A stretch of DNA of 64,000 nucleotides from Prosthecobacter vanneervenii (GTDB taxonomy: Bacteria; Verrucomicrobiota; Verrucomicrobiia; Verrucomicrobiales; Verrucomicrobiaceae), in the NCBI RefSeq assembly GCF_014203095.1, contig NZ_JACHIG010000001.1:1178001-1242000 (forward strand), given 5' to 3'. Of this stretch, positions 15,970 through 39,900 are shown piece by piece. The notes beneath the pieces were generated by a model that made no database searches, was not told the DNA's origin, and saw only the letters and a program-made list of their open reading frames with translations. Numbering within the stretch: the stretch's first letter is position 1; each line of letters opens with the position of its first letter. The translations under genes were made by a program, and so were the position numbers.

Positions 15970-18545
15970 AAGAAGCAACCGACCCGCCAGCAGAAGCAGT
16001 GAAACGGCATCCTGTGCTCGTGGGAGAGGATGCACCAGGGCCCGCTGGCAGCCCCCTGCTGGTGGCGGACGAGACCATGCCCGAGCCTGTCGCGGCCAAC
16101 GAAACGGACGCCGAGGAAGATTCCGCCAGCAGCTCCGACCGCAGCTACGAGGTGGAGGGCCCGGCGTGGAAGGGGTATGTGTTTGCGTCAGTGCCCATCC
16201 TGGCCTGTCTGGCCGGTGGGGGCAAGGAAGCGTGGGCCAAGGGCCTGATCACGCTCATGGCGGCCGTGGTGATGATCCTCTTCGCGCCAAAGCGCCGCCT
16301 CCCCAGCCTGGCACTGGCCGGGCTGCTGTGCGCGCTGCTGGCTCCGCTGCTGGTTTTCCTGCCGCAGTCGTGGTTTCCCGTGGATGCCTGGAGGGCCACA
16401 ATGGTGCAGGACTGGGGTATGCAGCTCTCCAAAACACTGACCCCGCAGGCCGGTGTGGCGCTGGAGGCGTGGTTCCTATTTGCCGCCTGCTGCCTGTGGC
16501 TGGGCTGGTGCCTGACGCGTGGCTTTTCCGAGGTACAGCGCCGAGCGATGATGCTGACGCTGACCTTTGGCGGCGCAGGGCTGTGCCTGATGTCCATCGT
16601 GGATGGCATGGGCTGGCTGCCGGTGCCGTGGTGGCCGCGGAATGTGCAGGAGTGGGGGGAGCCTTTCGGGCCCTTTGCCAACCGCAACCACACCAGCACG
16701 CTGGCGGCGATGACCTGCGTGCTGTGCGCGGCTTCCGCCTATGACGCGCACAAACGCAAATCCCTGCTGTGGATGCCTGCGCTGCTGGGGATGGTGCCGC
16801 CGACGGCCTGCCTCTATGTGAACAGCTCCCGGGCAGGTCTGGTCCTGGTGTTTCTGGGCTTGACGACGTGGTTGGGCACGATCGCCATGCGGCGGGGCTT
16901 CTTCCAAAAGATGGCGGTGTCCACCTCGCTGGTTTTCATTATCGCGGCTCTTCTGGTCATGTCAGGGGGGAATCTGTCCAAACGCCTTTCCACGCGGGGG
17001 CTGGAGGATTTCACGTCGGATCATGGCCGGGGCTCGGTGTATGCGGAGTCTCTAAGGATGACGCTGCATTCCCCCTGGATCGGAGTGGGGATGGGGAATT
17101 TTGACGCTGTATTTCCGCAGTATGCCCACCTGCCGGCGACACGGTTCCGATATTTGCACCCGGAGAGCGACATGCTCTGGCTGCTGACGGAAGGTGGCCT
17201 GCTGACTCTGCTGCCCGGGGCGCTGCTGGTGTTCTGGATCGCGATTTCGACCGGCCCGTGGTTTGGCAAAAAGAAGAAGCGCAAGTCCGGCATGCAGGAC
17301 CGCAGGCTGAGGAATGCGGCGGCCATTGTCTTTGGACTGGGCGCGGTGCACGGGATGGGCGATGTGCCCAATCACGGCTACGCTTTTGCCCTCGTCATGG
17401 CGCTGCTGGCTGGGATAGCCATCCGCCCGCGCCGGCTGCAGGAAGCCGCAGGCCCGGTGGAGCGCACGGCCTTCCGCGTGTGTGGCGTGCTGCTGCTGCC
17501 GCTGGGAGCAGCATGGATGGCTGTGGCCCTGGGGCACCCTTTCCTGCCAGGAAAAAGCGCTGCAGAAGCCCTGCGCAACCGTGCGATCAAGCTGGCTGAT
17601 TCCGGCTCTCCGGCCGGAGCGCTGCCGCTGATGGACCAGGCGATCGAAAAGGCCCCGATGGATTTTCGCTACTACTACGAGCGCGCCTGCCTGCGCCTGA
17701 AGCTGGGCCAGCCGAAGGAGAAGGCGCTGGAAGACTTCTCCCGCTCCCGCGCCCTGGAGCCCCTCTATGCCATGCTGTGCTATACCGAGGGGGTGTTCTG
17801 GCTGGGCTATGATCCGCAGCTGGCGGTGGTGGGCTGGCGGGAGTTTTTAAACCGTGCACCGGACATGGGGCCGGGAGAGTTTGGCTACTACCGGCAGATG
17901 CTGGGCTACTCCTACCACTATCCGGTGCTGCGCGGGCCGCTGTGGTCCCTGGCCACCAAGTCGGACCTGAAATTTGAATTTCTGCGCACGGTGCAGGACA
18001 AGGCGGAATTCCAATCCTGCCTGCAGAGCCTGCTCAATGAACATGCCCCCGGCGAGAAAGGCGCACAGCAAGGCCTGAAGCTGCTCAACCCGGTGCAGCG
18101 TGAAAATCTTTTCACCCTCTGGTATCAGCTAGGGGACCAGAAGGCGCTGATCTCCGCGCTGGAAAGCAACGCGGCGTGGAGAGATGACGGCTGGCGCATC
18201 CTGGCAGAGCATTATGCCAGGAATGCAGAGTTTCAGCGCGCCTGCCAGACCACCCTGCCCTACCTGACCCCGGTGCCGCGAGCCAGCTCCAACGCGAACA
18301 TGGACATCCCAAGCCTGGAGCGTGCGCTGGTCTATGACCCGACAGACATCCGGCGCGCGACCGACCTCTTTCAGGCTCAAAAGGCCCACGGAGACACGGA
18401 CGGAGCCATCCGCACACTGAAGCGAGTGGTGCCCCAACCCAATGCCCCGCTCTACTTGCGCCAGGAGCTCGGGGCCCTGTATGTGACCAAGCAGGACTAC
18501 CGCCGCGCCTGGGAAAACCTGCGCGAGGCCATGCAGAAACGCTAG
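15966..18545 (+). CDS. O-antigen ligase/polymerase family protein with C-terminal TPR region
   Basis: The product has 859 residues from the ATG that overlaps the preceding stop. After a Pro/Glu-rich cytoplasmic start (1-55) come about eleven membrane helices to roughly residue 495. 'NSSRAGLVLVFLGLT' and the periplasmic loop with 'GRGSVYAESLRMTLHSPWIGVGMGNF' (in two parts, around 340-380) fit the Wzy_C/WaaL family (the loop contains the conserved 'P..GvG.g.f'). The final 360 residues are helical repeats of TPR type, e.g. 'SPAGALPLMDQAIEKAP'. Family members polymerise or ligate lipid-linked oligosaccharides in the periplasm. With the coupled WecA-like enzyme it suggests a small polysaccharide module. 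Confidence 0.85.
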   Translation: MKEATDPPAEAVKRHPVLVGEDAPGPAGSPLLVADETMPEPVAANETDAEEDSASSSDRSYEVEGPAWKGYVFASVPILACLAGGGKEAWAKGLITLMAAVVMILFAPKRRLPSLALAGLLCALLAPLLVFLPQSWFPVDAWRATMVQDWGMQLSKTLTPQAGVALEAWFLFAACCLWLGWCLTRGFSEVQRRAMMLTLTFGGAGLCLMSIVDGMGWLPVPWWPRNVQEWGEPFGPFANRNHTSTLAAMTCVLCAASAYDAHKRKSLLWMPALLGMVPPTACLYVNSSRAGLVLVFLGLTTWLGTIAMRRGFFQKMAVSTSLVFIIAALLVMSGGNLSKRLSTRGLEDFTSDHGRGSVYAESLRMTLHSPWIGVGMGNFDAVFPQYAHLPATRFRYLHPESDMLWLLTEGGLLTLLPGALLVFWIAISTGPWFGKKKKRKSGMQDRRLRNAAAIVFGLGAVHGMGDVPNHGYAFALVMALLAGIAIRPRRLQEAAGPVERTAFRVCGVLLLPLGAAWMAVALGHPFLPGKSAAEALRNRAIKLADSGSPAGALPLMDQAIEKAPMDFRYYYERACLRLKLGQPKEKALEDFSRSRALEPLYAMLCYTEGVFWLGYDPQLAVVGWREFLNRAPDMGPGEFGYYRQMLGYSYHYPVLRGPLWSLATKSDLKFEFLRTVQDKAEFQSCLQSLLNEHAPGEKGAQQGLKLLNPVQRENLFTLWYQLGDQKALISALESNAAWRDDGWRILAEHYARNAEFQRACQTTLPYLTPVPRASSNANMDIPSLERALVYDPTDIRRATDLFQAQKAHGDTDGAIRTLKRVVPQPNAPLYLRQELGALYVTKQDYRRAWENLREAMQKR

Positions 18546-18960
18546 CACGCAGGATCGGGACGATCGCTCTCCGCAATTCAGGGCGTTGCGCAAGCGTGAG
18601 GGATTGGGACTATCCCTCTGTGCCAGAGGCTTTGCCGCAGCGATGGAGGGGGATCATCTTGTCCCCCATCTGTCGCGGAATCGTGGATGAGCGATGGCGC
18701 TGGATAATGCGGGAGGTTCGGCTTTGTGAAGTCGTGAGAGCGCTTGACGGTGCGGGAGCGTTAGGGATCGGGACGATCCCTCTGCGCCGGAAGCTTTGCC
18801 GCAGAGACGGATGGGGATCATCTTGCCCCCATCTGTCGCGGAATCGTGGATGAGCGATGGCGCTGGATAATGCGGGAGGTTCGGCTTTGTGGAGCCACGA
18901 GAATTCAGTGCTTTGAGGGAGCGTGAGGGATCGAGACGATCCCTCTCCGCCAATCCGTGC
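18546..18960. repeat. Tandem 163/164-bp repeat with family-B palindromes
   Basis: The gap between two convergent genes contains three copies of a GGGATC..GATCCC stem-loop beginning near 18596, 18760 and 18923, so a 163-164 bp period. The 61-bp stretch starting at 18668 (atctgtcgcggaatcgtgg) recurs without change at 18831. A second stem-loop, GGGGGATCATCTTG..CCCCC, is in each unit. No gene is visible. The last palindrome lies 45 bp beyond the giant gene's stop and might also help end its transcript. Confidence 0.8.
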
Positions 18961-18994: not shown

Positions 18995-21900
18995 TCAGAT
19001 GCTGCTGCGACGACGACGGCGGCGGATGGCGATGCCGAGCAGACCGAACATGAGGAGAATCATGCGGGCAGGCTCAGGCACGACAACGAGAATGCCGTAG
19101 TTGTTGAAGAGGCTGGTGTCCCAGGTAAGACCGGCGCCGATGGAGTCGAGGACGAGGTTGTCTGTGACACTGAAGCTGCCGGAGCCCATGGCGGAGAGCG
19201 CGGTGCCATCCTTGATGCTGGCGGTGGACCAGTCGATGAGGTTGAAGATGCTGCCGTAGGTGGCTCCGGTGAGGTTGTTGGCAGAGACGTAGATGCGGGC
19301 GTCTGTGCCGGCGGAAGAGCCCAGCAGGATGGTGCCGGAAGCGGAGATGAAGTCGTGGCTGCCATCGTGGCCGTTGTTCCAGGTGGTGTTGGCGATGGTG
19401 CCGGTGCCGCCATTGAGGCTGGCCACATAGTCGGCAGCGGTGCCGCCGTTGGCATTGAACCATGCGACGAAGCCGCTGTCCACCGAGTCGGCGGTGGTCA
19501 GGCCGAGCTGGATCTGACCGCCATTGGCAACAGTGAGGGAGGTGCTGGCGGCGGTGAAGGTGAGCGTCTGGTTGCTGGTGGCGGGAGCACCGTTTCCAGG
19601 GGCAAGGAAGGCGCCGCTGCCGATGATGGTGGAGCCTGCGATGGTGCCGCTGCCGGAGAGAGTGGCGCCTGAGGCGACGGAAACGCCTCCCACGGAGCTG
19701 TTGATCGAACCACTGGTTCCATCACCAACCTGGAGAGTACCCGCGCTGACAGTCGTTGCACCCGTGTAGGTGTTATCGGCATTGAGGATCGTGGTGCCGG
19801 AACCGGTCTTGGTGAAGTTACCAGCTCCCGTGATGGCACTGCTGCTGAAGTTCGTGCCCTGGGTGACCGTGCCGCTTTGATTGACCACAAAGGTGGAACT
19901 TGCTGCGACGCTGATCGCGCTGCTGGCGCTCAAAGAACCGGCGCTGCCACCATTGCCAAGCTGCAAGGTGGAGCCGCCCGTCACACTGGTGTTTCCGGTG
20001 TAGGTGTTCGTGCCTGTCAGTGTCCAGGTGCTGCCGCCGCTGACCGTCAAACCACCGCTGCCTGTAGCAATGGCACTGCCAACGGAACCACTGCCAGAGC
20101 CTGTCAGGGTAAGGTTGAAGCCTGATCCGGTGATGGCGCCAGTGTTGGTGAGGTTCAGCGTGCCGGCATCTGCGGAGATGCTGGAGTCTGCGGCGAGGGT
20201 AATCAGACCACCGTAGTTGTTGATTCCGCCGACGTTGACGATGGCAGCATTCTGACCCGAAGCGCCCGGACCACTGATCGTAGTGGCCTCGTTTCCAACT
20301 GTGATGCCGCCCTGGATCTGCAAGGTGGCTCCGCTTGCCACCGTGGTGCCGGTGCCCGCCGTGCCGTCAGCCGAACCGAGCGCGGCAGCACTCTGGATGT
20401 TGAGGATGCCAGAATTGACCGCAGTGGCACCCGTGTAGGTGTTGACAGCGGTGAAGTTGAGAGTTCCCGTTCCGTTCTTCGTGACACCACCAGTGCCTGT
20501 GTTGATGGCACCGCTGATCGTGGTGCTGCCAGCACCATCAACCGTGAGATTAGAGCTGCCACTAACCGTACCGGAAACCGTCAGAGTGCTGGAGCTTGAA
20601 TTGTTCGTCCAGGTCTGGCTGGCCCCCAGGATGACACTCGCAGAAATCGTATTGTTACCAGAGCCAGATTGGACGGTGATGCCGGAGGCATTGATGGTCA
20701 GTGTGTTTGTCCCGGCACCCGACGCGATGGTCGAGCCGGCGGTATTGGCCGTGCCGGTGCCAGTGAAGACCAAGCCAGCGATGGAGAAGCTGCCGTCCAG
20801 TGTGGTGCTGAGGTTGGTGGCACTGTTTGCCGTCAAGTAAACGGTCGAGATCGAGCCTGGCAGCTGAAGCGGATCAGTGCCGGCAGGGCCGTTGAGCCAG
20901 TTGGTCTGGTTGCTCGGATTGAGGATGGTGCTCCAGCTTCCGTCACCGCGCGCACCACTCCAATAGGCTGCCGTCGGTGTGGCATTGGAGATAACACTCA
21001 GCTGCAGGGCCGTCGTGCCCGTGCCGCTGACGTCAAAGTTGCCACTGGTGGCAGCGCGTCCGGTGCTGGTGCCGCCGCTCCATGTCAAGTTGTAGCTACG
21101 GCCACCGCCGATCTGGACGACGTTGCCGCCAGCACCAAAGGTGAAGCTGCCGGTGCCTGCGCCGAAGGTGAAGCTTCCTGCGGATGTCGAGCCGGCCAGG
21201 AACGTGACCAAGTTGTAGGTCCCGTTGGCAAGCGTGGTACCGGAGATGGTGTTGAGGCCCACCGTCGCGCCGCCGGAGTTCAGGTTGAGCTTCTGCCCCA
21301 CGGAAATGAGGTCCGTGGTGTTTCCGGCCGCATTGACATCCAGCAGCAGCGAAGCGGCTCCGCCAACACTGAGAGTCAGGTTCGTTCCCGCGCTTGCATT
21401 GGCCAGGGTCAGCGTATTCACAGCCGAGTCCAGAAGGCTGAGAGTGGCGCCGGAGTTGACCGTCAAGCTGCCAGCAGTCGAGCTGCCAATCGTGGTGTTG
21501 CCGGAAATGTTCAAGGTGGCGCCGCTAGCGACCGTGACGGCTGTGCCGCCGAGCGTCGCGCTGCCGCTGCCCACGAGTTGCAGCGTGCCGTTGTTGATGA
21601 GCGTGTTGCCTGTGTAGTTGTTGTTACCCGAGAGGGTCAAGGTGCCGATACCCGATTTGGTCAGTGCCAATTTGCTGGAGGCATTGGCTACACTGTTGTC
21701 AGTCAGGACACCTCCAAAAGTGCTGTTCAGATTCGTTGTGGAATCCGTGGCCGCCGTGCCACCAATGACGAGCACCTGTGTCGAGGCGGCCGAATTGGTG
21801 ATGAAGCCCGTGCCGGTGAGCTGTTTGCTGATCTGGCCGAAGCCGTTCAGGTCATAACCGGCTCCAGCATTGATGGTGATCAGGCTGCTGTTGGCGATGG

Positions 21901-24900
21901 CGTTGGCGACGCCGTTCTTCAGAATGCCGCCTGCGATGGTGATGCCAGCCGTGGTGCCGGTGCCGCCGAAAGCTGCGTCAGTCTGCGCGACGCCGATCGT
22001 AAGAATGCCCGCTCCCGCCTTGGTAAGACCGGTGGTGGATGCCACTGTGGTCGTGATCGCCGAGTTGATGGACAGCGTTGCCGCCGGGCTGAGCACCGTG
22101 ATGGTGCGCATCGCCGCACCGAGATTCATGGCCCCCGTGAGCGTCACGCCGTTGCCAGAAACAAGGCCGCCGACGGTGAAATCACCGTTGATTGTGGTTG
22201 CGTTACCGATAGAGCGGACCGTGCCGTCGCTCATGATGGTGGTACCACCAGCGATGGTCAGCGTGCCGGTGCCGACAGGGCCTGATGTGATGGCTGGCGG
22301 AGTGCCAGCGGTGGCCGCGCCAAATATCAGGGTGCCTTGGTTCAAGTTGAAGCCATTCGTGAAGGTGTTGGCACCACTGAGGGTCAGCGAACCCGCACCC
22401 GATTTTGTGATGGCACCTCCGGCGCTGCTGATGACCACCTGGATGTTCAGACTGTTGGGTGAGAGGCCCGAGGTGGTGATGACAGGGGCGGCATTGCTAA
22501 GCTGCAAGTTGGTAAGTGTCCCCGCGCCAGTCGTGAATACAGGCGTGGTGGCGAGGCTGTCATTCGTCGAAGTGATCGCATTAGCCGCCGTCAGAATGAT
22601 GGTGCTCGCGGAAGTGGTCGGAGTGCCAAAGGCAAAGGTCGGGTTGGCGGTGCCGCCCTGATTGTTGAAGTTGACGCTCGCCAGTGTTTGCGTGGCACCG
22701 GTGGTGTAGTTGAAGAGAGTCAAGGAACCGCCGCCATTGATGTTAATATTGCTGCTAGAGGCGATCTGTCCGGTGGTCGCATTGCCCAGCACCACAGAGG
22801 CATTGTTGATGGTGAGGTCTCCCGGGATGGCGACCAAGCCTGCGGCCGCCTGCAGGTTGGTGGTGCCCGCGTTGATGAAGGTGCCGCCTGTGTAGGTGTT
22901 GGAGGCAAATTGAGGGCTCAGTCTCAAGGTGGCACCCCCGTTGGAAATGAGTGACGACGAGCCGGTGATGGCAGCGTTGATGACGGTCGTGTTCTGGTTG
23001 ATGTAGAAATACAGGTCGCTTCCGGTGCCCGACAGGGTGTTCGTCGCGTCAACCGCGCCAATCGTGATGCTCTGGTTGGCATTGGTGATGATGCCGGTGC
23101 CGAAAGTCCATGACGTTCCCGAGACAGGCGTGATGGTCTGGGCAGCACCGGGAGCCAGGCGCCATGAGTTCGCGGCCTTGACGCCCGTGGTCAGGGTTCG
23201 GCTGGTGCCGTCATTGTAGTTGCCCGTGGCGACCGTGGCTGCGCTGATGTCGGTTCCGGTGAACGCGGTCGATGAGAAGCCACCGTAGGTGTTGCCCATG
23301 GCGACGACACCGAAGGTGTCCGAGTAAGTGGCGAAGGTGCTGCCATCCGCAACCGCCCAACCGCCGATGATGCCGTTGACGAGGTTTGCCGAGGAGAAGG
23401 CCGTACCGTTGAGCTGGGTGAGGAAGATATTGCTGTTCGTGTTCAAGCCCTGTCCGCCCAACGTGTTGGAGCCAGCCGAGGAGTTGTTGGTCGTAAAGCC
23501 GTTGAAGTTCACGCCGCTGCGGGTGCTGGCGTTGCGCACCAAGTTGCTGATGGTAAGACTGACGGTGCTGCCCTGGCTGATGTAGGGCAAGGTGTTGATG
23601 GTGTTGCCGCCTCCGGTCACTGTGACAGAGCTAAGCGTGACCACAGTGTCCACGGAGCCTGCGCCGTTGATGGTGAAGGTACCACCCTGGAGAGTGACAG
23701 GGTTGGCCGCAGCGATACGGGTGGGTGGTGTGGCCGAAGGGTTGAGACCGTAGTTGTCCCAGTTCAGCGTGCCGTAGTTCAGTGTCAGGCCCGCCGTGCT
23801 CGAGATCGTGCCGGAATCACGCAACTGCAGAGTACCGCCACGGACGATCGTGGCCCCATTGTAGGTGTTTGTGCTGGTCAGCAAGGTGGTATTGTTACCC
23901 GCACGGGTGAAAGCAATGTTGCCCGTGATCGATCCACTGAATGTGCCACCTCCGGTGGAGGTCAGGGTGGCCGCGGCCCCGGTGTTCCTGACGGTGCCGG
24001 CCATTCCCGGAAGTGGGTTGACCCCCTGGATCACACCCACAGCCTGGTTGCGGCCATTCAAGTCCACCACGGCGGTGGTGCCATTGACGTTCAAGGCATT
24101 TACCGTAGGCGTCGTCGCCCCTGGAACCACGGCAAGGGTATTATCAGAGCCGGAGTTCAGGTTCAGGGTGCCATCGTTCACTGTGGTATTGCCGCCGGTG
24201 AAATATGCCTGCCCGTTCAAGTTCAGCGTACCGCCGTCGGATTTCAACAGCCCTGCGGTGCCGCCGATGTTGAAGGCGCCGTTGATGTTTAACGTGGCTC
24301 CGGCGACGACGTGGATGTTGGGCGTGGTTCCAGCTGTGGTCGCGGCAAAGTTGCCGACATTGATGCTGGCTGTGAAGCCAGCCTGCACGAGGAGCGCGGT
24401 GGCGTTCGAAAGATTCATAGTGAGCAAACCGCCGCCGGGTCCATAGTTGCCAAAGGCCGTGGCATTTAGACCACTCTGGATGGTTCCATTGGCCAGGAAA
24501 GTCAGCGTGTTGGCCGGGGTGTTCGCAAAGATCGACTGCGAGCCGGAGACGCCGACGTTGTTGGTGGCACCCCAAGCAAGCGCCGTCGCAGTGTTGGAGG
24601 TGGTCAGATATTCTGCAGGAGCAGCGGAACCATTGCTGGCCACACCAAGCGCGCGCCAATTGTTGGTGACGCTGTCCTTGACCAGGAAGCCTACGCCGTT
24701 TCCACCGACGGTGGGATCGGCCAGCGAGTCACTGCGGATGGACATGGTGGTTGTGCCGTTGGCACCGCCACCCTGACTGCCGCTCAGGTTTGGAGTCGTG
24801 ATGACCAAATTGGCAACACCGCTGCTGCTGGCCGCGCCGGTAATGCCTGTAAAGACAGCCGAGCCCTGGCTGTTCAGGCTGCTAAGCGTGGTAATCGTGA

Positions 24901-27900
24901 GTGTGAGCGGGTTGCTCGCGTTGGCGGTGAGATCGACACGACCGCCACCGTTGGTGATATTGAACGCGGTGATCTGCTCGGTGGTCGGCGTGGAAGCCGT
25001 GCCACTGCCACTGATGGAGAACGAGCCGCCATTGAGGTTGAGAGTGCCTGTGGCATTGAGGCCAAGACGGTTATTGATGTTGGTGGTGCTGTTGTCGAGC
25101 GCGAGGGTGCCGCCTTCATTGGCGGTGAACGTTCCGGCAAAGGCCGGAGCTGTCGTGCCGGTGAACCACTGGCCGCTGCCATCAAATACCAATCTGCCGC
25201 CACTGATGGTAACGGTGCCGGTGGATCCAGTGGAGGCGCTCTGAGCCCCCGTCATGCGAAGGGTGCCGGTGCCGATCTTCTGCAAGCCAACCGCGTTCAG
25301 CGTGGCGTCATTGAAGCGCTGAATCTGGCCTGAGAACACGGTGCTGGTGTTGTCAAAACCCACGGTGAGCGTTTGGGCTCCGGAGGAGTTGAAAATCGTG
25401 CCCGAGCCGGAAAGCGAACCCCAGGTCGTGCTGGCATTGTTCAAATCGTACCGGGTGCCGGAACCGAGGGTGAGCGCGGAGAATCGCGAGCCTGCGTTGG
25501 CCACGCCGTTCTGGATGCCTCCAGCGGTCACATTGAAGCTGCCGGTGAAGACGTTTTGGGCACCGAGCTGGAGGATGCCGTTGCCACTCTTGGTGATGCC
25601 GCCGGAGGAGCCGACGATGGCCCGGAGCAGGAAGGCGCGTTGCAGCGGAGCGATGTCGCTGGTGCCGTTGGCGTCAATAGTTCCAACACTGATCGTGTTT
25701 GGCGAGCTGCCAAAGTCCACACGCCCCTCGATCAAAGCAATGGTGCCTACGTTGGAAGATGTGGAGACAATACCCTGGCTGCCGATCGTCAGGACCCCTG
25801 TGGAACCGGCACCCGTGGCGGATGCGGTTGAGTATGTTGTGACCGTTGGATTACTGGTGCCGCCAATGTTGTTGAATACCAGACCTGCCACGGTGTTGTT
25901 TCCAAACAAGTTCAATGCTGAACCGCCATTGAGTGTGACCACGTTGCCGGAGTTGATCGAACCAGCTGCATTCAATGTCACCGTGGCATTGTTGATCACG
26001 AGACCATTCGCAGGAGTGCTGGCCAGCGGAATGGTGCCGGTGGCGAGCACATTCAAAGTGCCCTGATTGACGACCGTGCCACCACCGTAGGTATTCGTGC
26101 CGGCGATGTTCACCTGACCGGAGCCGCTCTTCACGAGTGCCACATTTGATCCAGTGATCACGCTGTTGATGATCTGCGGTCCCGTTCCCTGAGCATAGAC
26201 GAACAGTTCCGTGCCGCTGGTGGTGATGCTGCCTTGGTTGACAGCGCTGCCAATCGTCTGGCTGGCCGTGCTGAAGAAGAGCAGGCCGCCGCTGCTGAGG
26301 GTAAGCGTTCTGCCGGAAGCGATGTTCACCGTCTGCGCCGCAATGTTGCCGATGCGCAGGCTGTTGAGCGTCTTGTTATTGGACACCGTCAAGGTGTTGC
26401 CTGTCACCGCCACGTTAATGCTAATGTTGTCGGCCGTCGCAGCGGCGTCAATCGTGGTAGGCGTAGAGGTGGTGTTTGAATACTGCAAAGCTCCTGCCGT
26501 ACCCAGCGCAGCAACGCCCAGCCCGGGGACGTAAGTGGCAAAGTCACTGGTGCCGATGACTGCCCAGCCGCCGATGATATTGTTGGTCAGACCGGCAAAG
26601 GCCGTGCTGGTGGAAACTCCGTTGATCTGGTTGAGGATGACGCGGGCGCTGCTACCGATCTGGCCACCGGTTGCCGCAGTGAAGTTCACCGTGCCACCGC
26701 CAGTCGTGCGCACGAGGTTGCCGATGATGAGATCGGACGAGTTGATGCCTGTGCCGCCACCCACGACAGAGCTGATAAACGAGTTGCTCTGTGCCAAGGT
26801 CACTGTGCCGACCGTCTCCGAAGACGCCACCAGTGCACGCCCTTGAAGGGCAAGGGTGCCGCCGCGGAGATTGATGGCGGCTGCGTCATTGATGCGGTTG
26901 GTCAGATCGATTGTACCCGTGTTGTTGTCCGCAGTCAGAGTCGCGTAATTGATGTCGATCGAGGTGGTGTTAGCCAGAGTAGCATTGTCGCGCAGGGTGA
27001 TCGCGCCACCGTTGAGCAGCGTGGTGCCGGTGTAGGTCTGCGGCGAGTAGATGGTCAGCGTATTCTGGCCCGAACGGGTGAGGTTCACGCTGCCCGTGAC
27101 GGCTCCGGCCCAGTTGCGGGCGTTATTGTCCTGGTTGATGACCAGATTGCCAGTGCCGGTGTTGGACGTGATCGTGCCACCCGCTCCATTGACAGCGCCA
27201 TCGGTGAAGAGTGCGAGAACCTGCTGGCTGTTACCATTGAGGTCGAGCGTGCCACCATTGATCGCGATGAAGTTGTTGGCTTGAAGGGTGTTTTTGCCAC
27301 CATTCAGCACGAGGGTACCTTGGTTGATCACGAACTGACCCGACAGGCTGTTGACCCCCGTGGTGAGACCAGAGATCGAGGATTGTGGCGTGCTAAGGGT
27401 CAAGGTGCCAGCGCCGGCCTTGACGAAGCTGATGGCACCGTTGCTAGTGCCGTTGCCACCGGTCAGAAGGCTGGTGATGGTGAGAGAGGCTGTGCCGGGC
27501 GTCCAGATGTTGAACGGAGATGAGGTATTGACCTGATTCAAGACACCACCGCTGATGGTGGAAGATCCACTGGTCACCAGGATGCCGCCGCTGCTGCTGG
27601 TCAACTGGAGCAGCGATCCGATGGTGGCAGTGGAACCGCCTGACATCGTCAGCGAGTTGATGTTCAGCGTCGCCGCACCGGTGCTGGTGCTGCCGCTGGT
27701 CAGGTTGATATTGTTGCTGGCAGTGAAGGTGTTCGCCGTGTTGTATTCAGAAGCTGCGAGCGGACGCAGGTTTGCGGTGCCCGTGTCTGCCGTTGCAAAC
27801 GAAGTGCCGTTGCCCGTGGCGGTGGTGTCAACCAGTGCCCAGGGCAGGATGCCCTTGTTCGCGGTGCCCGCAGCACCCGTCTGGCCGTTGAAGGTAAAAC

Positions 27901-30900
27901 CACCAGTGCTGTTGGCAATCGTCGCAACGCCCGCCCCGGCAGCCGAGCCGAGACTGCTGCCACGGAAGAGCACGGAGGCACCGGAAGGTCCCGTGGTCGC
28001 ATTCTGCGCCGGAGCCACGTTGTTAGCCGCCGCACCAAAAGTGAGATTGGCCTGGCCGGCCGGGTCGGCCGTGACGGTCACCACACTGTAGCCACGGCTG
28101 AAGGTAGGCGCGCCAAGCGCTTCAGTCGTATTCGAGGCATTGCCGATAAGATTGAAATTGCCGCCGCGGAGCTGGAGCGTGCGTCCGCTGCCGCCGAGGC
28201 GGTTGGCGGTGAGCGTGGCCGAGTTGTTGAGGGTAAGAGTCGCACCCACATCCACGAGAGCGTTCGCAGTGGTGCCCGTGCCGATCAGGCCGGCACCATT
28301 GAAGGTCAGCGTTCCTGCGGATACAACGATTGCCGACGCGCTGGCTGCCGGGCTGGCAACCGAGACAACCATGCTGCCAGCTCCGATCTTGATGAAGTTG
28401 TTTCCGGTGGCTGCTCCATTGCCGTAGGCGACGGTCGAAAGATTGATGGTGCCGCCAGCACCGACGTTAAAGGTCGTGCTGTTCACGGTCGCGATGCCGC
28501 CCGTGATATTCAAGGTCGCCGAAGGGTCGGCACCGATGGTGATCGAATTACCAGACGTCTGGGTGATGAGACCGGCAAAAGTGCTGGTTCCGCTGACCGC
28601 CTGGATCACACCGCCGCTGTTGATGCCAGTCATGCCAGTGACGCCAAAAGTGATCGGATTGGAGTAAGTCACACCACCAGCGAGCTGGAGTGCGGCACCA
28701 ACCGCAGGTGAAATCGTAACCGCACCGGAACCAAGTGCGTTGCTGTTCTGCAACTGGATGGCACCTGCATTGATCGTGATCGCACCCGTCCAGGTGCTGT
28801 TGCTGGCGTTGATGGCCAGAATGCCGTTGTCATTCTTGGTGAAGGTGACACCCGTGCCAGCGGCGAGCGAGAACGGCGTGTTGAGCGTCAGCGTGTTCCC
28901 GGCAGTGACTTCCATGGCGTTGTTCAGCGCATTGAGGATGATGCTGCGAGCGGTCGAGAAGGTGCCGGTAGCGCGGAGGCCGACGCCCGTTGTTCCATCC
29001 ACATCAAGGGTGATGCTGTTGTTGATATTGCCAAGAGCCCCGTCGGAATTGACCGCGACGATACCGTTCAGAATGTCGATGGTAGCGCCTGTGCCGCCAA
29101 ATGTATTTCCGCTGTTGGTCAGAGCGAGGGTGCCTGCACCGGATTTCACGAGCGTGTAGCCGCCGACATCCGAAACCACTCCGCTGAGAGTGAGGCCCTG
29201 GACCACATTGGAGGCGGTGGCTGTGGCCACCGACATGTGCGATGCGCCGCTGAGTGTCGTGGTGCCCGTGAACTCGACACCATAGCCGTTCAGATTTTGC
29301 ACGGCGAGGATGCTGCCATTGTTGGTCAGATTGCCCTGCTGGATGTTTTTGTTGCGGGCAAGCGGTGCTGAACCTGAGCGGTTGACGGTGACCGACACAT
29401 CGCTGGTGACGTTGAGGTTGGCACCCACCGAAAGGCTTTCGTTTGTCCCAAGGGTGTTTCCGTCAGCGGTGAAAATCAAACCGCCCGCTGCATTGAGGGT
29501 TCCCCCGAAATTGCCCACACTGAGAGTACCGAGGCCATACTTGTTGATGATCGCGCTGGAATCCGACGGGCTCGCATCTGCGATGATGACCGTCATCTGG
29601 GGTGCGGTCACCGTGGCGTTCCATGTTTCGGGCAGCGTTGTGACCCCATTGAAGGTGATGTTGTTCGTCCCGTTAAAGATCGTGCTGCCCGTGCCGCTGC
29701 CGGGGCCGGTCGAGTTCGCGCTGTCCAAAATGGTGAGGGCATTGGCCACGGCATTCGCTGCAGTGGAGACGACCGAGACGTTGTTGGCCAGGGTCAAAGT
29801 TCCGGTGCCGAGCGGGCCGTTTGTCACGACAGTGCCGGTTCCGGGAATTCCGCTGTAGGTGCTTGGGCTGCTGCTCGCGCCGATGATGATCCCGCCGGAA
29901 TTGACGGTCACGCCACCTGTGAAGGTGCTCGCCGTGCTGCCGAGCTGGAGGATTCCGTTGCCCGACTTAACGATGCCACCGTTCTGGATCGCGGAATTGA
30001 TCGTCAAGTCAGCTCCCCACGGTGCCACCTGCACTCCATTTACAAGTGTGGCACCAACATTGATCGAGTAACTTGCGGCACCATTCAGATCAATCGTGCC
30101 GGTCCCGATGACGGCGGCATTCCCGGCATTGACGGAGGTGGAGGAGATGCCTCCGGTGAGGGTGAGCACACCCGTCGGGTTCACCGTCGGCGCCGAGCCG
30201 CCCAGGTTGTTAACAATGATTCCAGCCAGCGTGTTGTTGCCCGCGAGATTGACGAGTGAGGCACCGCCGAGAGTAAGCGTGTTGCTGCTCGGGATGATGC
30301 CACCCGCCGTCTGGGTGAAGATGGCCTGGTTGACCGTGAGGCCGCCCGTGCCCATCTGGCCGGTTGCACCGAGAACAATGTTGCCACTGTTGATGACCGT
30401 GCCGCCGGTGTAGGTGTTGACGGAGTTGATGATGGTGTTGCCCACACCAGCAGCCTCAACCTGTCCCGAGGTGAAAATCACCCGGATCGCCCCGCTATTA
30501 TCCGCGATTGGAGCGTTGAGAGTGACCGTGCGGTTCGTTCCGCCATAGTTGGCATGAGTGAGATAGAGGTCACCGCCGCCCGAAGGTCCGGTGATGGTGC
30601 CATTGAGGATGGAGAAATCCACATTGTCGGTCGCCTGGGCAAAGAGGATGCCGCCGCCCTGCACTGTCAGAGTGTTGCCACCGAGATTGAGCACCGTGGC
30701 CGCGGTCTGGGATGCGAAGTTGAGGGTGTTCACCGTTGTGTTCGCGACCAAAGTCGTAGTGCCCGCCGCAGTGAAGCGGACGTTGTCCGTGGCAGTTGGA
30801 TTGCTCAGCAAGCCGAGGGCGGAGTATCCGGCGAAACCGTTCTGGTTGAGCTGACCGACGCCATAAGTCGAGTCATAGCTGGCCCACTCGCGGTCCACGA

Positions 30901-33900
30901 TGGCCCAAGCTCCAATGATGTTGTTTGTGAGCGTCGGCGCGCTGGTGATGAGGACGTTCGGCGTGCTGCCAATGGCCCCAAGGGAGTTTGAGCTTCCGTT
31001 GAAGCGCAGTGTGGCAGCGGAGCCCGCAGACCTGCTCAGCGAGGCGAGGGTGAGGATGGCCGAGTTGACATTGGTGCCACCAGTGGCGGCACTGATGAAG
31101 TTAAAACCTTCGGTCAGTGTTATGGCACCAAGGGTTTCGGTGCTGTTGAGCTGCTGACGACCTGAATAGCTCAGCGTGCCGCCAGCCATCGTGATGGGTG
31201 CCGAGTCATTCACCCTGTTGTTCACGTTATACAGGTTGCCGTTTGCCAGCGTAAGACCGCCGTAATTGATGTAGATCGGCTGGCTGGTGTTCGGCAGCGC
31301 ACCGTTGTCATTGAGCGTGAGTGTGCCTCCCGTGATGAGCGTCGGTCCCGTGTAGGTCTGTGCGCTCTGAAGGTTTAGCGCGCCCGTGCCGGTCTTGTTG
31401 AGATAAATGTTGCCGGAGATCACACCGGCGAAGTTGGTGTTGCCATTGACCGTCAAGATGGCCTGGCTGCTGGCGTTGTTGGTCACCGTGCCGCCTGAAA
31501 TCCCGTTGCCACCGCCTGCCGAGGCGCTGGAGAGACCGCCGACAAACTGGTTGTTGCCATTCAGATCGAGCGTGCCGCCAAAGTTCACCGCCAGGCTCTG
31601 ATTGTAAAGCATCGGGTTGGTGATGCCGGTGCTCGTCAGCACAACCGAGCCCGAATTGATGTAAGTCGTGCCGCTTACGAACTGCTGCGCATTGATGTTG
31701 AGGGTTCCGGGAAGACTCTTGGTCAGACCTGCTGTGCCGGTCATGCCGCTGTTCACCGTCAGCGACTGGCCGCTTTGAACGTAAACAAGCCCCTCGGCTC
31801 CGAGTGAGACAATCGGCGTATTGAGGAAGGCACCACCGGTGCCATTGGCCATGATCGTGCCGCTGGTCAGTGTCAAAGTGGCGGGATTCAGACCGCCAAG
31901 ACCGCCCACTGCGGCCGTGTTATTGATGGTGAGCGCATTCAGCGTCTGGTTGCCTGTCAGAGAGTTGAGTGTGGAGGACGTGGCCTTGAACGTTTGTGTG
32001 GCCGTGGCGCTGAGGATGTTTGTCGCCGAGGCATAGCCGGTGAACGGAATCACGCCGAGCGAGGCGCTGTAGGTGGCGAGTTCGTTGCCGTTGACCGTCA
32101 CACGGTTTAAGATGCCGGTGTTGGCAGGAGTGAGAGTCGGAGCCGTGGTGAATTTCAAGAAGTTGGTCGCCGTGCCAAAAGTACCGGTGACATTCAGCGT
32201 GCCGCCTGCATTGCCGGCGAATGTGGAGAAAGTCAGCGCGGATGAGCCGGTGCCGCCGTTATTGATGGTGTTAGCGCCCTGGTCGGCGACAAACGCACCG
32301 GCCGTTTCCGTGGAGTTGTTGGCGATGAAATCGAACGTGCCTCCCTGCAGCGTCAACGCCCTGGCTGTGAGTCGGTTGCTGGTGTTCGTGCCACTGTTGT
32401 CGAGGCGCATCGTCGCACCTTGGTAAACAATGTTGACCGCGCCGCTGGAGTTCGTCGTGCCTGCGCCGCTCAAGACAAGCGTGCCCTTCTCCACTTTCAC
32501 GCCACCGGTTGTGATCGTGCCACCGAACAATGCCGTGGTGATCGTCAGCGTGCCGGAGCCATATTTGTCGAAGCCGAACATGGCACCTGACTGGCCACCG
32601 GTAGCGTTGATGTCACCTTCCGCGTTGAACTGCAGACGGCGCGTGCCGGTGACGGTGATCAGGCCTGTGATGTTGAGAGTACTGCCTGCACGAGCGCCGA
32701 TTGTAGAATCAAACGGCACCGCAATGCCGCCGGCGTAAGTGTTCGTGTCGGAAACGTTGTCCAGCACGCCTTGGAAATTGATGCCTGCGCTGAGGGTGTT
32801 TGCGGTGGCTTGCAGGTTCAGTGCGTTATTGACCGTGACGCCTCCGGCAAGCTGGAGCGCCGCACCGACGACACCAGCCGACGGTGAGACGGAAATCGTT
32901 CCGGTGCCGAGGGGGGAGGTCAGCGCCGGATTGTTCACGAGAATCGCACCTTGAACGATGTTGACGTTACCGCTCCAGCCAGAGTTTGAGGCATTAATGA
33001 CAAGCGTGCCCAGATCCTGCTTGTTCAGCGAAGCAGTCGCTCCTGTGCCACCGTTAAGGTCAAAGGCAGCGTTCAGCTGAAGCGTCTTGCCGTTGGTGAC
33101 TTCGATCGCGCGTGTGTTCGCCGTGTTCGCAAGCTGGATCACGCGGCTGGTGGTGATGTTGTCCGTTGCACGGAAAGCCGAGGTGCCAGTCGTGGGGCTG
33201 AGCACGATGAAGTTGCCAGAGTTGCCAAGCTGCGCATCGGCGTTCACGGCGACCGTGCCTTGGTTGATGTTGATGTTGCCGGAGAAAGTGTTGTTCGATG
33301 GTGTGGCATTGGCGATCACCATGGTGCCGCTGCCGGTCTTGTTGAAGCCCGTGCCGGTGAGGTTACCCGTGAGGTAAAGCCCCTGCGTCACATTCGATGC
33401 CTGCGTTCCGCTTACGTTGTAGGTCGGCGTGGCGGTGAAGGCGATGGCGTCTGAAACCTGCAACCCGTAACCCGAATTCGTGGTCACCGTGAGACCGAGG
33501 CCCAGGTTTGAGATGCTCGACGGTGCCAGAATCTTGTTTGACGCGGTCGGGAATGGCAGCGAGCCGCCGCGGTTCAAGGTGATGCTAGGAACGATTCCTG
33601 AATCAAAGATGACGCTGCCTAGAGCAAGGGTCTGGACCGAGCCGGTGCGGTCACCGTCGTGGATGAGCGTGACCAGGTTCGAATTGCCAAGGGCAGTCGC
33701 ATTGAAATTGCCGGTGTAATTCGTGGCATTGAAGATGAGTGTGCCGAGGCCGGTCTTGGTGTAGCTGCTTGCTGCAGGCAGATTTCCAAGGAGCGCCACG
33801 GTGGTGCCCGGGTTGATGACATTGATTGTTGGCGTACCGCCGCTGAGTCCTGCGCCCGTGAGATTGCCGGTGAGGGTCAGCGTCCAGGCGGTGATCGCCG

Positions 33901-36900
33901 TCGCGTCAAAGGTGGGACTGCCGGCAAAGGAAATGTCGTTGCCGATGCTGAAGCTGCCCGCCGTGAGCATCGTGGTTCCTGCAGCCATTGCCACCGGACC
34001 AATACCGAGCGGACCGGAAACGACGGTGGCGGTGCTGTTCGTGCTGCTGGCACCGACGACGATGCCGCCGCTGGAGACTGTCAGGCCATTGAACACATTC
34101 TGGGCGCTCAGTTGCAGCAGGCCGGTTCCGGTCTTGGTAATAGACCCGGTGCCGGTGATGATGGAAGCAATCGAAAGCGTCGGCTGGATGCTGGTGTAAG
34201 TCTGCGCACCCACGGCGATGGGGGCGATATTGAAGGTGTTACTGGCCGAAGTGAGGGCGACAGTGCCGCCGGTAATGGTGGCCGTGCTGTTGGCATTGCT
34301 CGAGGTTGCGGTAACCGGACTGCTGCTTCCAAGAGTCAAGGTCCCCGTTACAGTCAGAGTCGGAGCAGCATCACCCCCGTTGTTGTTCAAGGTCACGCTG
34401 TTGAGAGTCTGGTTGACGCTGGCAGCGAAAGTGAGGCTGGCACGGCCATTCATCGTCAAATCCGTGGAGGCCGCGATGGCGTTGCTGGTATTCAGGTTGA
34501 CCGTGGTGCCCGTGCCCTGAACGCCGCCGTTGATGACAAAGCCGCCGCCAGGGATGACGACGTCGCCCGCGGTGGTGGGGCTGATGTTCAGCGTACCGCG
34601 GTTGACCACGGTGCCGAGGCTGTAGGTGTTCGGAGCGGTAAGGGTGAGGGTTCCAGCACCGTCCTTCACCAGCTTGGTGGCACCCTGAATGACCGAGTTG
34701 ATGGTGATTGTGTTCTGGTTGTTGTAGGTGATGAGCTCGCCAATGCCGCTGGTGAGCACGCCGCGGATGGCTGTGGTGCCGATGGTGGAGTTGACGGCAT
34801 TATCGCTCCTCAGCAGGCCACCGAGTTCGAGGTTCAGGATGTCCCCAGCGTTGGTAAAGGCGATGTCGTTGGTGAACGCACCGGCCAGGCGAAGGATGGC
34901 CGCATTGGTAGTACCAGGCGCGAGGGTGGTGGTGGTGGCGGCCACGGCCGGGATCTGCCACAGATTGCCACTGCCAGCGGAACCGTCATAACCAACGAAA
35001 CCGCCCTGGCCCACGACGCCGATGCCTTGGCCGGCATTGTAAGCGGCGTAGTCTGAGCTGTTGGCGATGGCCCATGCACCGATCATTCCACCATTGGTCG
35101 TGGCCAAGGGGGTCGTGAACAGAATGCGGGAGTTGTTACCCTGCTGACCGAGGTTGGTGCCGGTAAAGTTGACCGTGGAGTTGTTACTGCGTGTCAGGCT
35201 GGCAAATGTGATGTCCACAGAGGTGATGGTGCCGCCGCCGGTGTTGGCGGTGATGGTGTTGGCTCCTTGGGCCAAGGTGACAGCGCCGAAGGTCTCCGTG
35301 GCGGCCGTAGTCAGACGACCCGTGTAGGTTATGGAACCGCCGCGCAGCGTGATCGGGATGGTATCGCCGATGCGGTTGTTGTTCTGTGTCTGAAGGCTGT
35401 TGTTGTTGTTGAGCTGCAGGGCAGCGTAGTTGAGATCGATGGCCGAGGTATTGAGGAGAGTGGCATCATTCTCCAGGGCGAGGACACCACCCATCACCAG
35501 CGTGCTACCGGTGTAGGTCTGTGCCTGTTCGAGGGTGGTGGTCGTATTGCCCCCAGTCCTGACGAAGCTGAGGCCAGTGCCGCTAATGGTGCCGGCCCAG
35601 GTGGTGTTTCCGCTGCCCGCCACCAGCAGGCCTCCACCGGTGCTGCTGATGATGGTGCCACCCGTGCCAGGCAGCACCCCGGGAGAACCGAGGTTGCCCA
35701 CATACTGGATGCTGCCTTTCAGGTCGACCGTCGCGTTGCTGTCAATGTTGAGCCCGGCAATCCCCGGGAAGAGAGTGTTGTTGCCAGCATTCAGGATGAG
35801 AGTGCCTTCGTTGACGTTGGTGGTGCTGTTGTACCACTGCTTGGCAGAGAACTGCAGGGTGCCAGGCAGAGCTTTGGCTACGCTGCTGGCGGAGGTGATG
35901 GCACCCGTGATGTCCAGCGTGGTGCCGGTGGTTGTCTGAATAAAGGCATTAGCGCCGAGGTTCAGGCGCGGGACGCTGATGGTGTGGGTGAGACCACTAC
36001 CATCGGCGATGATGCCGCCGGATGTCAGGGTGAGAGTGAAATCCCCGGCTCCGCCCAGGACACCGATGTTGCGGGCGGTCGTGTCGGAGATGGAGAGCGC
36101 ATTCAGCGTTCTGGAGACGCTGATGTCATCCACCGTGTAGGAGCTGGTCACCTTCACCGTATCGGTGGCCAAGGCAGTGTTGATATCCGTTCCGGCAGCG
36201 TAACCGGAGAAGGCTACGATGCCATTGGTGCCGTTGTAGGTGGCGAAATCTGCGCCGCCGAGGAACACGCGTGCCGCGACGTTGTTGCTCAGATTGAGTC
36301 CCGTGCTGGTAGTAAACAGAATCTTGTTGTTCGAGCCGAGGCTGCCGACCTTCGCCAGGTTCAACGATGAACCAGAGTTGGCGAAGTTCACCGAGGCAAA
36401 GGTCAGCGTGTTGGCACCGGCAGAACCAGTGGTGTCAATGACCATGTCGATGCTGTTCACGGTCAGAGCGCCCGTGGTTTCCGTGGTGCCGTTGCCGATG
36501 AAGTTGAGGGTGCCACCGGTGGTGGTCACGGTGCCGGTGTCAAAGAGACGGTTATTGTTGTTGGTGCCGCCAGTGACATTGTCGATCACCAGGGTGCCAC
36601 CTGCAGTGATGGCGATGTTGCCAGCCCCCCACGCACCGCTGGCCCCGCTGAGAGTGGTGGTGCCGCGGCTGGCGGTGAGCGTACCGGTGGCCACGTTGGC
36701 AGCGGTCAGGGTGGTGGTGCCTGTGCCGGACATGGTGAGGCCGCTGGCCCCGGTGCCTGCGTTGTATACACCACTGATCAAGGTATTGCCCGCACCGAAG
36801 ATGGTCAGGGTAGAGGCTGCCGTGTTAGTGATGCCTGTCCCCGAGATGATCAGCTGGGCACCACTGGTGGTTTCGTTTTGCAGCGTACGGCTGGCTCCGA

Positions 36901-39900
36901 GCGCTACGCCGCCGCTGAACTCGATCGATTTGCTGCCGTCCACCTTGGGTGGGGAACCCCCAATGGTGACAGCGTTTGTAATGGCGTTACCACCAGTCAG
37001 GTTGGCAAGGTTCGGGCCAACACGCAGGGTGCCGCCGTTGAAAGCAAAGGTAGCCGTGCCACCGAAGGCCGCCGCTCCAAAAGCACCCACCTTGTCCACG
37101 ATAAGAATACCGTCTGAGAGCGTCGTCCCGCCAGTGTGGGTATTTGCGCTGGAGCCCGTCAGGGTGAAGCTGGCATTGGGGTCAATCGCGATGTTCAGCG
37201 CCGTGCGTGAGCCAGCAGTGCCGGTCGAGGTTGCGACGTTGCTGTTGTCGGCAATGACTCCGTTCCAGACCGTGGAGCCGTAACCGCGAATGTTGAGAAT
37301 GCGGGTGGAGATTGCGGTCGGGTTTTCGAGGCTGACGTAGTTGCCACTGAAGGTTAGCAGAGCGCCGACTTCCAAGTTGTTGCTGATGGTCTGGTCGTTG
37401 GCACCAGCGGCCTTGGTGACGGTCGCATTGAAGGTTATGGCATTGCGGCCAGCAAAAACGGCGGCTGAGTTATTCGCCAGCGTCAGGGGAGCCGTTGTCG
37501 TCAGCGCGCCGCCATAGGCGAAGATGCCAGCATTGCTGAGGGTGATGCCCGAGGCCGAGCCAATGCCGTTGGAGGTGAGTCCCAAGTTGCCACCACCGAC
37601 GCTAATAGCGCCAGTGAAGGTGTTGCTGGAGGCCGGGTTCAGAATCCAGGTGCCGCCATCATTTTTGGCAACTGAGAGCTGGTTCGGGGAGGTCGCATTG
37701 GTGCTGTCAGTCAGCACGAGGTTCATCATATTGTTGTCGGTGTTCGAACCGCGAAGGTCCAGAACGACGACACGCGCGACTGTGTCACCACGAGTGGTGT
37801 TTGCGAAAGTTCCGGTGTTCCAGACGAGAGCGCCTGAACCAGATGAGTCGATGCGGAAGTTTCGGTTGGTAGTGAAACTGGCGCTGGCCTGGAGGGTGAG
37901 GTTTCTGCTGGCTGTTTCGCCTGAGCCAACATAGATCAGAGGGTTCAAGTCAGAGTCGCCGGGGTTGAAAATGAAAGTCCCCGAGGTCCCGGTGCCGGAG
38001 CCCAGAGAACTGGCTGAACCATCGCCTCCGATGGAGGAAACCACCAAGCTGCCGGACGTGACCGTGGTGGTGCCCACGTAGGTGTTGGCGTTCCCAAGGA
38101 TGAGGACACCACCACCTGCCTTGGTCAGCGTGCCGCCGGAGCCACCACTGATGACGCCGGAGAGGATGCCCGCAGTCACCATGGCACCTGTGTTGCCGTT
38201 ATTGTTGACCGTGACGGTGCGCGCAGCCGTGCCGAGGTTGATGGCGTTGGTGAGTTCCGTTTCACCGAGGGCGGTGGAGGAACCGAGGACGAGAGAGGTT
38301 GCAGGATTGAAACTGCCCGAACCCCAAGTAAGGGCTGCGCCGCTGCTCAGATTCACCACCAGACGGCTGGTCGTGCCTGCGGCAAAGCCGGTGTTTCCAG
38401 CCGTCAGCTGCACCTGACCGGCACCCGTGCCCAACGTCCGGGCGAAAGTGGTGCCTGCCACTTCATAAACACCGCCGCTCAAAGTGAGATTGCTTGTGGA
38501 AGTAACGCCCACACCTTCGACCGCACGAAGCTGACCACCGCTGATGGTCGTGACGCCCGTGTAGGTGTTCGCCACGGCAGGATTCAAAATCCACAGACCG
38601 CCGCTGACGGTCAAGGCGGTGGCAGTGGAATCCAGCGTGTTGTTGGTGATGCGGGGGCGGAAGATGTTGTCGCCGATGGATGTGCCGCCGAGGGTCAGTG
38701 TCTTGGCACCGTTGGTGACGAAGGCGATGTCGCCTGTGTTGCTCCAGATGATGCTGGCGTTGTTGGCACCGGTGCCAGCCGCAGCGGACTCGTTGCCGTA
38801 GGTGCCGGAGGACTGGATGGTGGCGTTGCCTGCGAGAGAGAAAAGGCGGTCTGTGCTGATGGACGGGGACTGGGTGGTCTGGTAGATGCCGCCACCCGTA
38901 GTGGCACTGGCTGCGGCCGCACCGGTGTAAGTCAGCGTTCCGCCGTTGAAGATGAGATTGGAGGCCGCGTTGGAGGAAGCGCCGAGACCGCTGGCCAGGC
39001 CACCATCTGCCAGACGAGTGACGGCGAGGTTGCCGGTGTTGATGACAGTGACTCCCGTATAAGACTGCGCGCCAAGGATAGCCTGAGAGCGAGCGCTGGT
39101 GCCGTTGATGATGACGTTCAGCTTGCCCGCACCGTCCTGAAGCGTGCCGCCGAAGGTGGTGGTTCCCGTCGTGGCGGTGCCGCCGAGGGAGATGGATGAC
39201 TGGGTGTTGGCACCTGCGCCGGAATTGGTGATGAGGCCTGTACCGGTGAGTGCACCGATACTGATCTGAGCGTAGCTGGGGCCGCCTGTGTAAAGGGCAG
39301 TCGAAGCACCAGCCGCGTTGATGTCAAGAATAGCGCCCTGGCGGATCGCGGTCTGATTGCCTGCCGTGGAGAGCACACCGAGCGCGGCCGTGGAACCGGA
39401 CATCTGGATGGCCCCCTGATTGATGGTGGTGTTGCCGGTGTAGGCGTTGTTGCCAAAAAGAATCAACGTGCCGGTGCCCGCCTTGGTGAGCGCACCCGCG
39501 CCGCTGCTGATGGTCGTGCCGGACGATGCAGAACCAATGCTCAAGGCATTGCCCGTGGTGAGCGCAGCACCCGAGGAGGGTGCCACCGCCGGCGATGAGC
39601 CATTGGTGATAACAACCAACTCCTGGGCCGCTGTGCCGAGCGCAAAAGCACCCGTGATGGAGGCGGAGCCGGCGGAGTTGTCAAACAAGATGCCGCCCGG
39701 ATTGGTGGAGAAGCTGAGGCTTTGATTCAAAGTCAATGCTGCGCCACCGGTGAGTTTCAGGCTGTTGACCGTTGCGGCGACTGCTGTCGTGCTGGCTGCA
39801 CCGGAGATGGAGTAGTTCAAAGTGCTGGTCGGCGCGAGGGAACCTGACCAAGCTGTATAGCCGGTGTATTGGCTGACAGTAGCACCGCTGCTGACCCAGT

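What the first reader, a model, noticed from the sequence alone, without database searches (positions are those of the whole stretch)
18998..19081. PEP-CTERM tail on an autotransporter-type passenger, with no barrel
PATR repeats are best known from type V autotransporters that carry a C-terminal outer-membrane barrel. Here the barrel is replaced by VPEP plus helix plus poly-Arg. This implies Sec export and exosortase processing. How a 790-kDa repeat protein then crosses the outer membrane is not explained by either known route, so a separate transport step may exist.
Basis: partly seen in the sequence, partly recalled or inferred. Interest (0 to 1): 0.7.

Follow-up and report, generated by a model that had tools for sequence, protein, structure and literature searches.

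The report
Barrel-less autotransporter passengers with PEP-CTERM tails
A giant bacterial surface-type protein looks like the exported half of an autotransporter, but where autotransporters carry their own outer-membrane pore it carries a short sorting tag; the same genome holds at least fourteen more like it and a few relatives that kept the pore, so this is a natural set for asking how tagged proteins leave the cell.

Summary
18998-19081 (-) encodes VPEP, a hydrophobic helix and six Arg at the end of a 7937-aa, 777-kDa PATR-repeat protein. It matches TIGR02595 above cut-off, and no barrel is found. It is not a one-off: at least 15 of 19 PATR frames seen in this genome end this way (892-11644 aa), 2 end in a barrel and 2 in neither. 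The main addition is the join. The ~90-200 residues before VPEP are predicted to fold like the autochaperone cap that closes classical autotransporter passengers (IcsA, Ssp, IgA protease, pertactin). Related caps, up to 36% identical within this genome, sit before a barrel in some proteins and before PEP-CTERM in others: 30 and 39 of 69 classified loci in the family. The exchange falls just after the cap's last strand, in an unknown direction. How PEP-CTERM proteins cross the outer membrane is an acknowledged open question for the whole class. T2SS-like, Wza-like and TpsB parts exist here, but nothing ties one to these proteins. Verdict: new variant of a known kind.

The parts
18995..42808 (-). 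7937-aa PATR-repeat protein with PEP-CTERM tail
42701..42808 (-). N-terminal residues 1-36, Sec-type signal by eye (charged n-region, hydrophobic core, small residues before ATFYWD)
   Evidence: sequence; comparable starts seen in most of 14 paralogs; no signal-peptide predictor was run
19706..42700 (-). PATR beta-strand repeat passenger, with about four super-repeats of 1060-1440 aa near residues 2344-6481
   Evidence: motif spacing
19082..19705 (-). autochaperone-like C-terminal cap of the passenger (residues 7702-7909)
   Evidence: AlphaFold2 pLDDT 82.2, pTM 0.83 on 19073-19705; VIA-align to C-terminal passenger ends of IcsA, IgA1 protease, Ssp, Ag43, Hap, pertactin
19082..19357 (-). conserved ~90-aa part of the cap (GDxFxLxDW ... 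GLxWDxSxF ... GxIxV) shared by the 15 PEP-tailed PATR paralogs
   Evidence: alignments A1, A2; phylum search
18998..19081 (-). PEP-CTERM sorting tail: VPEP, hydrophobic helix, RRRRRR

Best explanation
The gene makes a giant exported beta-helical passenger of autotransporter type that is sorted by the PEP-CTERM/exosortase system instead of by its own barrel. Steps, in order: (1) Sec export by the N-terminal signal (inferred from sequence). (2) The C-terminal hydrophobic helix and Arg cluster stop transfer and hold the chain in the inner membrane (inferred, as for the class). (3) The PATR repeats wind into a beta-helix closed at the C-terminal end by an autochaperone-like cap that lies directly against the VPEP (cap fold: predicted structure and structural match; the rest inferred). 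(4) One of the generic exosortases cuts at VPEP and probably transfers the protein to another molecule (enzymes present; the reaction is inferred). (5) The protein ends up at the surface or in exopolysaccharide by an outer-membrane route not identified for any PEP-CTERM protein in the papers I read; a folded-state route such as a type II-like secretin is my first guess. In this family passenger and cap are one unit, to which a barrel, a PEP-CTERM tail or another C-terminus is joined just after the cap's last strand.
For: Tail over TIGR02595 cut-off. 4 exosortases, two over the TIGR02602 cut-off, one of them inside a Wzx/glycosyltransferase cluster. 34 PEP-CTERM matches over cut-off in the genome, of which 1 of the 30 with loci is internal. 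15 PATR proteins share cap plus tail. Cap without its tail found in 28 of 288 genomes of the phylum; 28 of those 28 have an exosortase against 213 of 288 overall. 13 of 13 named loci end in the tail. Cap fold: IcsA autochaperone 3ml3 Z 10.1, rmsd 3.1 over 135; IgA1P 844-989 Z 10.9; Ssp 495-640 Z 9.1; pertactin 392-537 Z 7.6; other beta-helices 6.6 or less apart from 7jvi. PEP-tailed L043 against barrel-tailed L065: 36% over 129 aa, E 1e-11. 69 loci: 30 barrel-length, 39 PEP-type; 7 of 7 barrels tested hit PF03797.
Against: No localisation, cleavage or surface data for this protein. No Pfam autochaperone model hit the window tail or the L065 cap at E<=1. The window's own cap does not align significantly to any of the 7 barrel proteins by BLAST; the link runs through paralogs. 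7 of 28 readable distant loci have the cap without a PEP tail. The exosortase co-occurrence is confounded by kinship. In Akkermansia, PEP-CTERM proteins were more abundant in intracellular than outer-membrane fractions (PMC4960237 passages).
Confidence: 0.72

Rival explanations
1. Simple inner-membrane anchor: the tail is a stop-transfer segment, the protein stays in the periplasm tethered to the inner membrane and is never sorted outside.
For: The tail is a hydrophobic helix plus Arg cluster. Akkermansia PEP-CTERM proteins were found at higher level in intracellular than in outer-membrane fractions (PMC4960237). A 777-kDa beta-helix is hard to move across the outer membrane.
Against: The invariant PEP in all 15 paralogs is not needed for an anchor. 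Exosortases are present and accompany the cap in 28 of 28 genomes. [quoted passage not shown]
Confidence: 0.15
2. The barrel is supplied in trans: a short-passenger barrel protein or a TpsB-type transporter carries the PEP-tailed passenger across the outer membrane.
For: The genome has 7 PF03797 barrels over cut-off, three on open frames of only 514-572 aa, and 3 TpsB-like PF03865 proteins. The retained autochaperone cap would suit surface folding.
Against: The TpsB genes have large exported neighbours of their own and none lies directly beside a PEP-tailed PATR gene (by eye). A membrane-anchored C-terminus would have to be freed first. No gene neighbour recurs beside the paralogs.
Confidence: 0.06
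3. The cap is a generic beta-helix end that evolved separately before PEP tails, with no tie to autotransporters.
For: Beta-helices are repetitive and slide in structural alignments. The structural scores are middling. No Pfam autochaperone hit.
Against: 36% identity over 129 aa between a PEP-tailed and a barrel-tailed protein of one genome, E 1e-11. A barrel-side cap query recovers both kinds across the family. The autotransporter rows come from C-terminal passenger parts (that they end the passengers is partly recalled).
Confidence: 0.07

Closest known systems
PEP-CTERM/exosortase substrates (TIGR02595, Haft et al. 2006)
   Same: PEP motif, hydrophobic helix, basic end, many paralogs, exosortases present, first recognised in Verrucomicrobium spinosum
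   Different: Passenger is a PATR beta-helix with an autochaperone-like cap, up to 11644 aa; PEP-CTERM proteins on average show few recognisable domains (PMC1569441 passages)
Type Va autotransporters with PATR (IcsA, Ssp)
   Same: PATR next to an autochaperone-like cap at the passenger's C-terminal end; in Ssp PATR 464-496 precedes the autochaperone-like last three rungs (PMC9977779 passages)
   Different: No linker and no C-terminal barrel
MYXO-CTERM and GlyGly-CTERM systems
   Same: Tripartite C-terminal tag handled by an intramembrane protease; surface delivery by the type II system (PMC11980579 passages)
   Different: Other signature residues and other enzymes; route not tested here
Two-partner secretion exoproteins
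   Same: Large exoprotein, beta-helical (recalled), without its own barrel
   Different: No N-terminal TPS domain listed for this protein and no linked TpsB

Membership tests
PEP-CTERM/exosortase substrate | PEP motif, hydrophobic helix and basic cluster at the C-terminus, family model over cut-off | tested here: met
   TIGR02595 25.6 bits, cut-off 16; PF07589 22.1 on the last 201 aa but 17.3 on the half protein
PEP-CTERM/exosortase substrate | exosortase encoded in the genome | tested here: met
   4 PF09721 matches; types
PEP-CTERM/exosortase substrate | N-terminal signal peptide | tested here: inconclusive
   read by eye and for 14 paralogs; no predictor available
PEP-CTERM/exosortase substrate | cleavage at the motif | not testable with these tools
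   needs mass spectrometry
Type Va autotransporter | C-terminal PF03797 barrel in the same chain | tested here: not met
   no barrel at E<=1 in either half; the chain ends in the PEP tail
Type Va autotransporter | beta-helical passenger with autochaperone cap | tested here: met
   by predicted structure and VIA-align; sequence link through L043-L065; Foldseek alone weak and no Pfam autochaperone hit
Two-partner secretion exoprotein | N-terminal TPS domain | tested here: not met
   none among the Pfam matches at E<=1 of residues 1-4000
Type IX secretion cargo | C-terminal Por-type sorting domain | tested here: not met
   none among the NCBIfam matches at E<=1 of the tail

The most novel reading that the evidence does not exclude
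In Verrucomicrobiaceae one passenger unit, beta-helix plus autochaperone cap, trades its anchor between a self-contained outer-membrane barrel and an exosortase tag. The tagged forms are folded in the periplasm with the cap as folding nucleus, and the finished rod (by my estimate over 100 nm long if wholly wound) leaves by a folded-state outer-membrane exit that serves PEP-CTERM proteins generally.
Probability: 0.25. Interest if true: 0.8.

Novelty: new variant of a known kind. Interest (0 to 1): 0.5.

Why it matters
How PEP-CTERM proteins cross the outer membrane is an open question stated in print for the whole class (PMC12188702). Relatives in one family that share passenger and cap but differ in barrel or PEP tail are natural chimeras: swapping the last 30-400 residues between two of them would show what the tail needs from the cell that the barrel does not. 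They also ask whether an autochaperone works without a barrel.

Tried and rejected
Recurrent neighbours: flanks of all 15 PEP-tailed PATR genes (24 stretches for 13 genes, plus the window and L082) were compared all against all; no family recurs beside them, so the O-antigen-ligase neighbour in the window is not a linked partner. Sequence search of the cap profile against PDB: two weak, irrelevant hits (E 0.44 and 0.64). TpsB as dedicated exporter: 3 TpsBs, each with other large neighbours, not pursued. Secretins: 9 PF00263 matches; of 8 scanned, 5 have GspD as best model, all below its cut-off, 1 is SctC and 2 are Amuc_1098 type, over cut-off. GspG: 3 over cut-off. Wza-type: 6. All show only that parts exist. 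Direction of the barrel/PEP exchange: the tree needs 2 changes, 42% of bootstrap trees need 1, root unplaced; several own rows are long branches and the bootstrap had not settled; sampling leans to barrel-like caps because the query was one. Literature: 'autotransporter-associated beta strand' with 'PEP-CTERM' 0 papers; 'autochaperone' with 'PEP-CTERM' 0; 'exosortase' with 'autotransporter' 1, the Akkermansia proteome; 'PEP-CTERM', 'autotransporter', 'Verrucomicrobia' 4, of which I opened that one; 'PEP-CTERM', 'giant', 'Verrucomicrobi' 1, irrelevant by its listing. The library lacks most subscription papers, so the fusion may be in print elsewhere; public annotation of such proteins is recalled, not checked.

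Full report
Observation. The stretch 18998-19081 on the minus strand is the last 28 codons of a 7937-aa frame that runs to 42808. It reads VPEPARMILLMFGLLGIAIRRRRRRSSI. TIGR02595 scores 25.6 bits against a cut-off of 16. PF07589 passes on the last 201 residues (22.1 against 20.7) but not when half the protein is scanned (17.3). The body carries TIGR02601/PATR repeats, 31 stretches by NCBIfam and 27 by Pfam, and no barrel was listed at E<=1. Mass 777 kDa.

It is one of a set. Among the PATR matches scored in this genome (150 of 500 candidates, so a lower bound) I count 19 open frames: 15 end in a PEP-CTERM tail, of 892 to 11644 aa; 2 end in a PF03797 barrel (5528 and 2074 aa); 2 end in neither (1191 and 4693 aa). 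The genome has 34 PEP-CTERM matches over cut-off; of the 30 with loci one, L061, is internal. Seven barrels are over cut-off.

Exosortases. Four by PF09721: L001 and L002 exceed the generic TIGR02602 cut-off (115.8 and 128.4 against 105.55), L003 is XrtU, L004 is XrtZ beside a PGAP-CTERM partner. L002 lies among a Wzx-type flippase, glycosyltransferases and methyltransferases. L001 is about 30 kb from the window in the same contig. Which enzyme serves the PATR proteins is not shown.

The cap. All 15 PEP-tailed PATR proteins share about 90 residues before VPEP, with L, D, W and G invariant. Searched without the PEP part, this profile occurs in 28 of 288 genomes of the phylum, and all 28 have an exosortase, against 213 of 288 in the same sample; kinship confounds this. 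Of the 30 loci returned, 21 have a PEP-type tail directly after the cap, 7 have another C-terminus and 2 I could not read in frame. All 13 loci from named genomes, mostly Verrucomicrobiaceae and Prosthecobacter MAGs, have cap plus tail.

The fold. AlphaFold2 on the last 330 residues with 13 relatives gave pLDDT 70.5 and pTM 0.74, with a final helix at the tail. On residues 7702-7912 alone it gave 82.2 and 0.83. Foldseek E-values are weak (best 0.086 and 0.46), but the top names are autotransporters, among them the IcsA autochaperone region. VIA-align on the second model gives 7jvi 13.4, IgA1 protease 844-989 Z 10.9, IcsA autochaperone 3ml3 Z 10.1 (rmsd 3.1, 135 residues), Ssp 495-640 Z 9.1, 5ke1 8.6, Ag43 8.5, Hap 8.4, pertactin 392-537 7.6, EspC 860-1002 7.4 and Hbp 929-1074 6.5; among the rest bactofilin has 6.6 and pectate lyase 5.2. 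That these ranges are C-terminal ends of the passengers is partly recalled. The tool's caution on middling Z applies. For Ssp a paper places PATR at 464-496, followed by autochaperone-like last rungs and a hairpin cap (PMC9977779, passages): the same order as here, where a PATR copy stands just before the cap.

Sequence link to barrels. The region before the tail in PEP-tailed L043 matches the region before the barrel in L065 of the same genome at 36% over 129 aa, E 4e-14 to 1e-11 by database size. The window's own cap does not match a barrel protein directly. With the L065 cap as query, 43 of 59 genomes of the family have matches. Of 69 loci that I classified (29 of the 30 returned plus 40 fetched), 30 continue for 354 or more residues and 39 end in a PEP-type tail, two of them with altered motifs (VPKP in L210, VPEA in L235). 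Seven of seven long ones tested are PF03797, as is L065; the rest are inferred from length and sequence. Compared side by side, both kinds run to the same final strand, of the form TGVxSI, and then diverge into PEP or into a linker; a simple motif search placed the motif in 18 of 30 barrel and 29 of 39 PEP rows, in several of them at an earlier strand.

History. A tree of 84 caps (69 plus the 15 own) needs at least two changes between barrel and PEP; one change is not excluded (42% of bootstrap trees). The barrel forms lie among PEP forms, but the root is unplaced and the query favoured barrel-like caps. I do not claim a direction.

Mechanism. Shown: tail, enzymes, cap homology between the two kinds. 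Predicted: cap fold. Inferred: Sec export, anchoring, exosortase cleavage and surface fate. The papers I read in passages propose outward sorting for PEP-CTERM proteins (PMC1569441), report them in Akkermansia outer-membrane fractions though more in intracellular ones (PMC4960237), report exosortase-dependent changes in the Nostoc exoproteome and call the outer-membrane step unclear (PMC12188702), and give the type II system as the route of two other C-terminal tags (PMC11980579). This genome has GspD-like secretins below their cut-off, three GspG over cut-off, six Wza-type proteins and three TpsBs. None is linked to the PATR genes by neighbourhood. The rod length in the novel case is my estimate: about 5 Angstrom per turn from the sizes in PMC9977779 and a recalled 20-25 residues per turn.

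Verdict. The tail and the missing barrel are confirmed, and the anchor exchange at the autochaperone-like cap makes it a new variant of a known kind. The transport gap is an existing open question that this family makes easier to test.

Noticed in passing
window 18593-18952: About 163-bp tandem intergenic repeat just downstream of the giant gene; 46 partial or full matches across the genome, so a dispersed repeat.
   Followed up: partly
window 14494-18545 (+): WecA/MraY-like transferase followed by a Wzy_C O-antigen-ligase protein, convergent with the giant gene; not found beside the paralogs.
   Followed up: partly
L180 (G000:C5:483900-486900): The 11644-aa protein holds a second, internal copy of the cap followed by a new repeat start, which looks like a fusion of two passengers.
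   Followed up: no
L004 484-2823: Exosortase Z (643.6 bits, cut-off 475) with a PGAP-CTERM partner beside it.
   Followed up: no
L118 (G000:C1:1035444): SctC-type secretin of a type III system over cut-off.
   Followed up: no
L252, L253, L254: TpsB-like genes beside large exported proteins; two clusters also hold what looks by eye like ExbB/ExbD-type genes.
   Followed up: no
L077, L095, L099, L108: PATR or cap proteins that end in a DxDGDG-rich region instead of barrel or PEP tail: perhaps a third anchor.
   Followed up: no
L135: Contig binned as Rhodobacterales carries a Verrucomicrobiaceae-like cap and tail; probably a misplaced contig.
   Followed up: no
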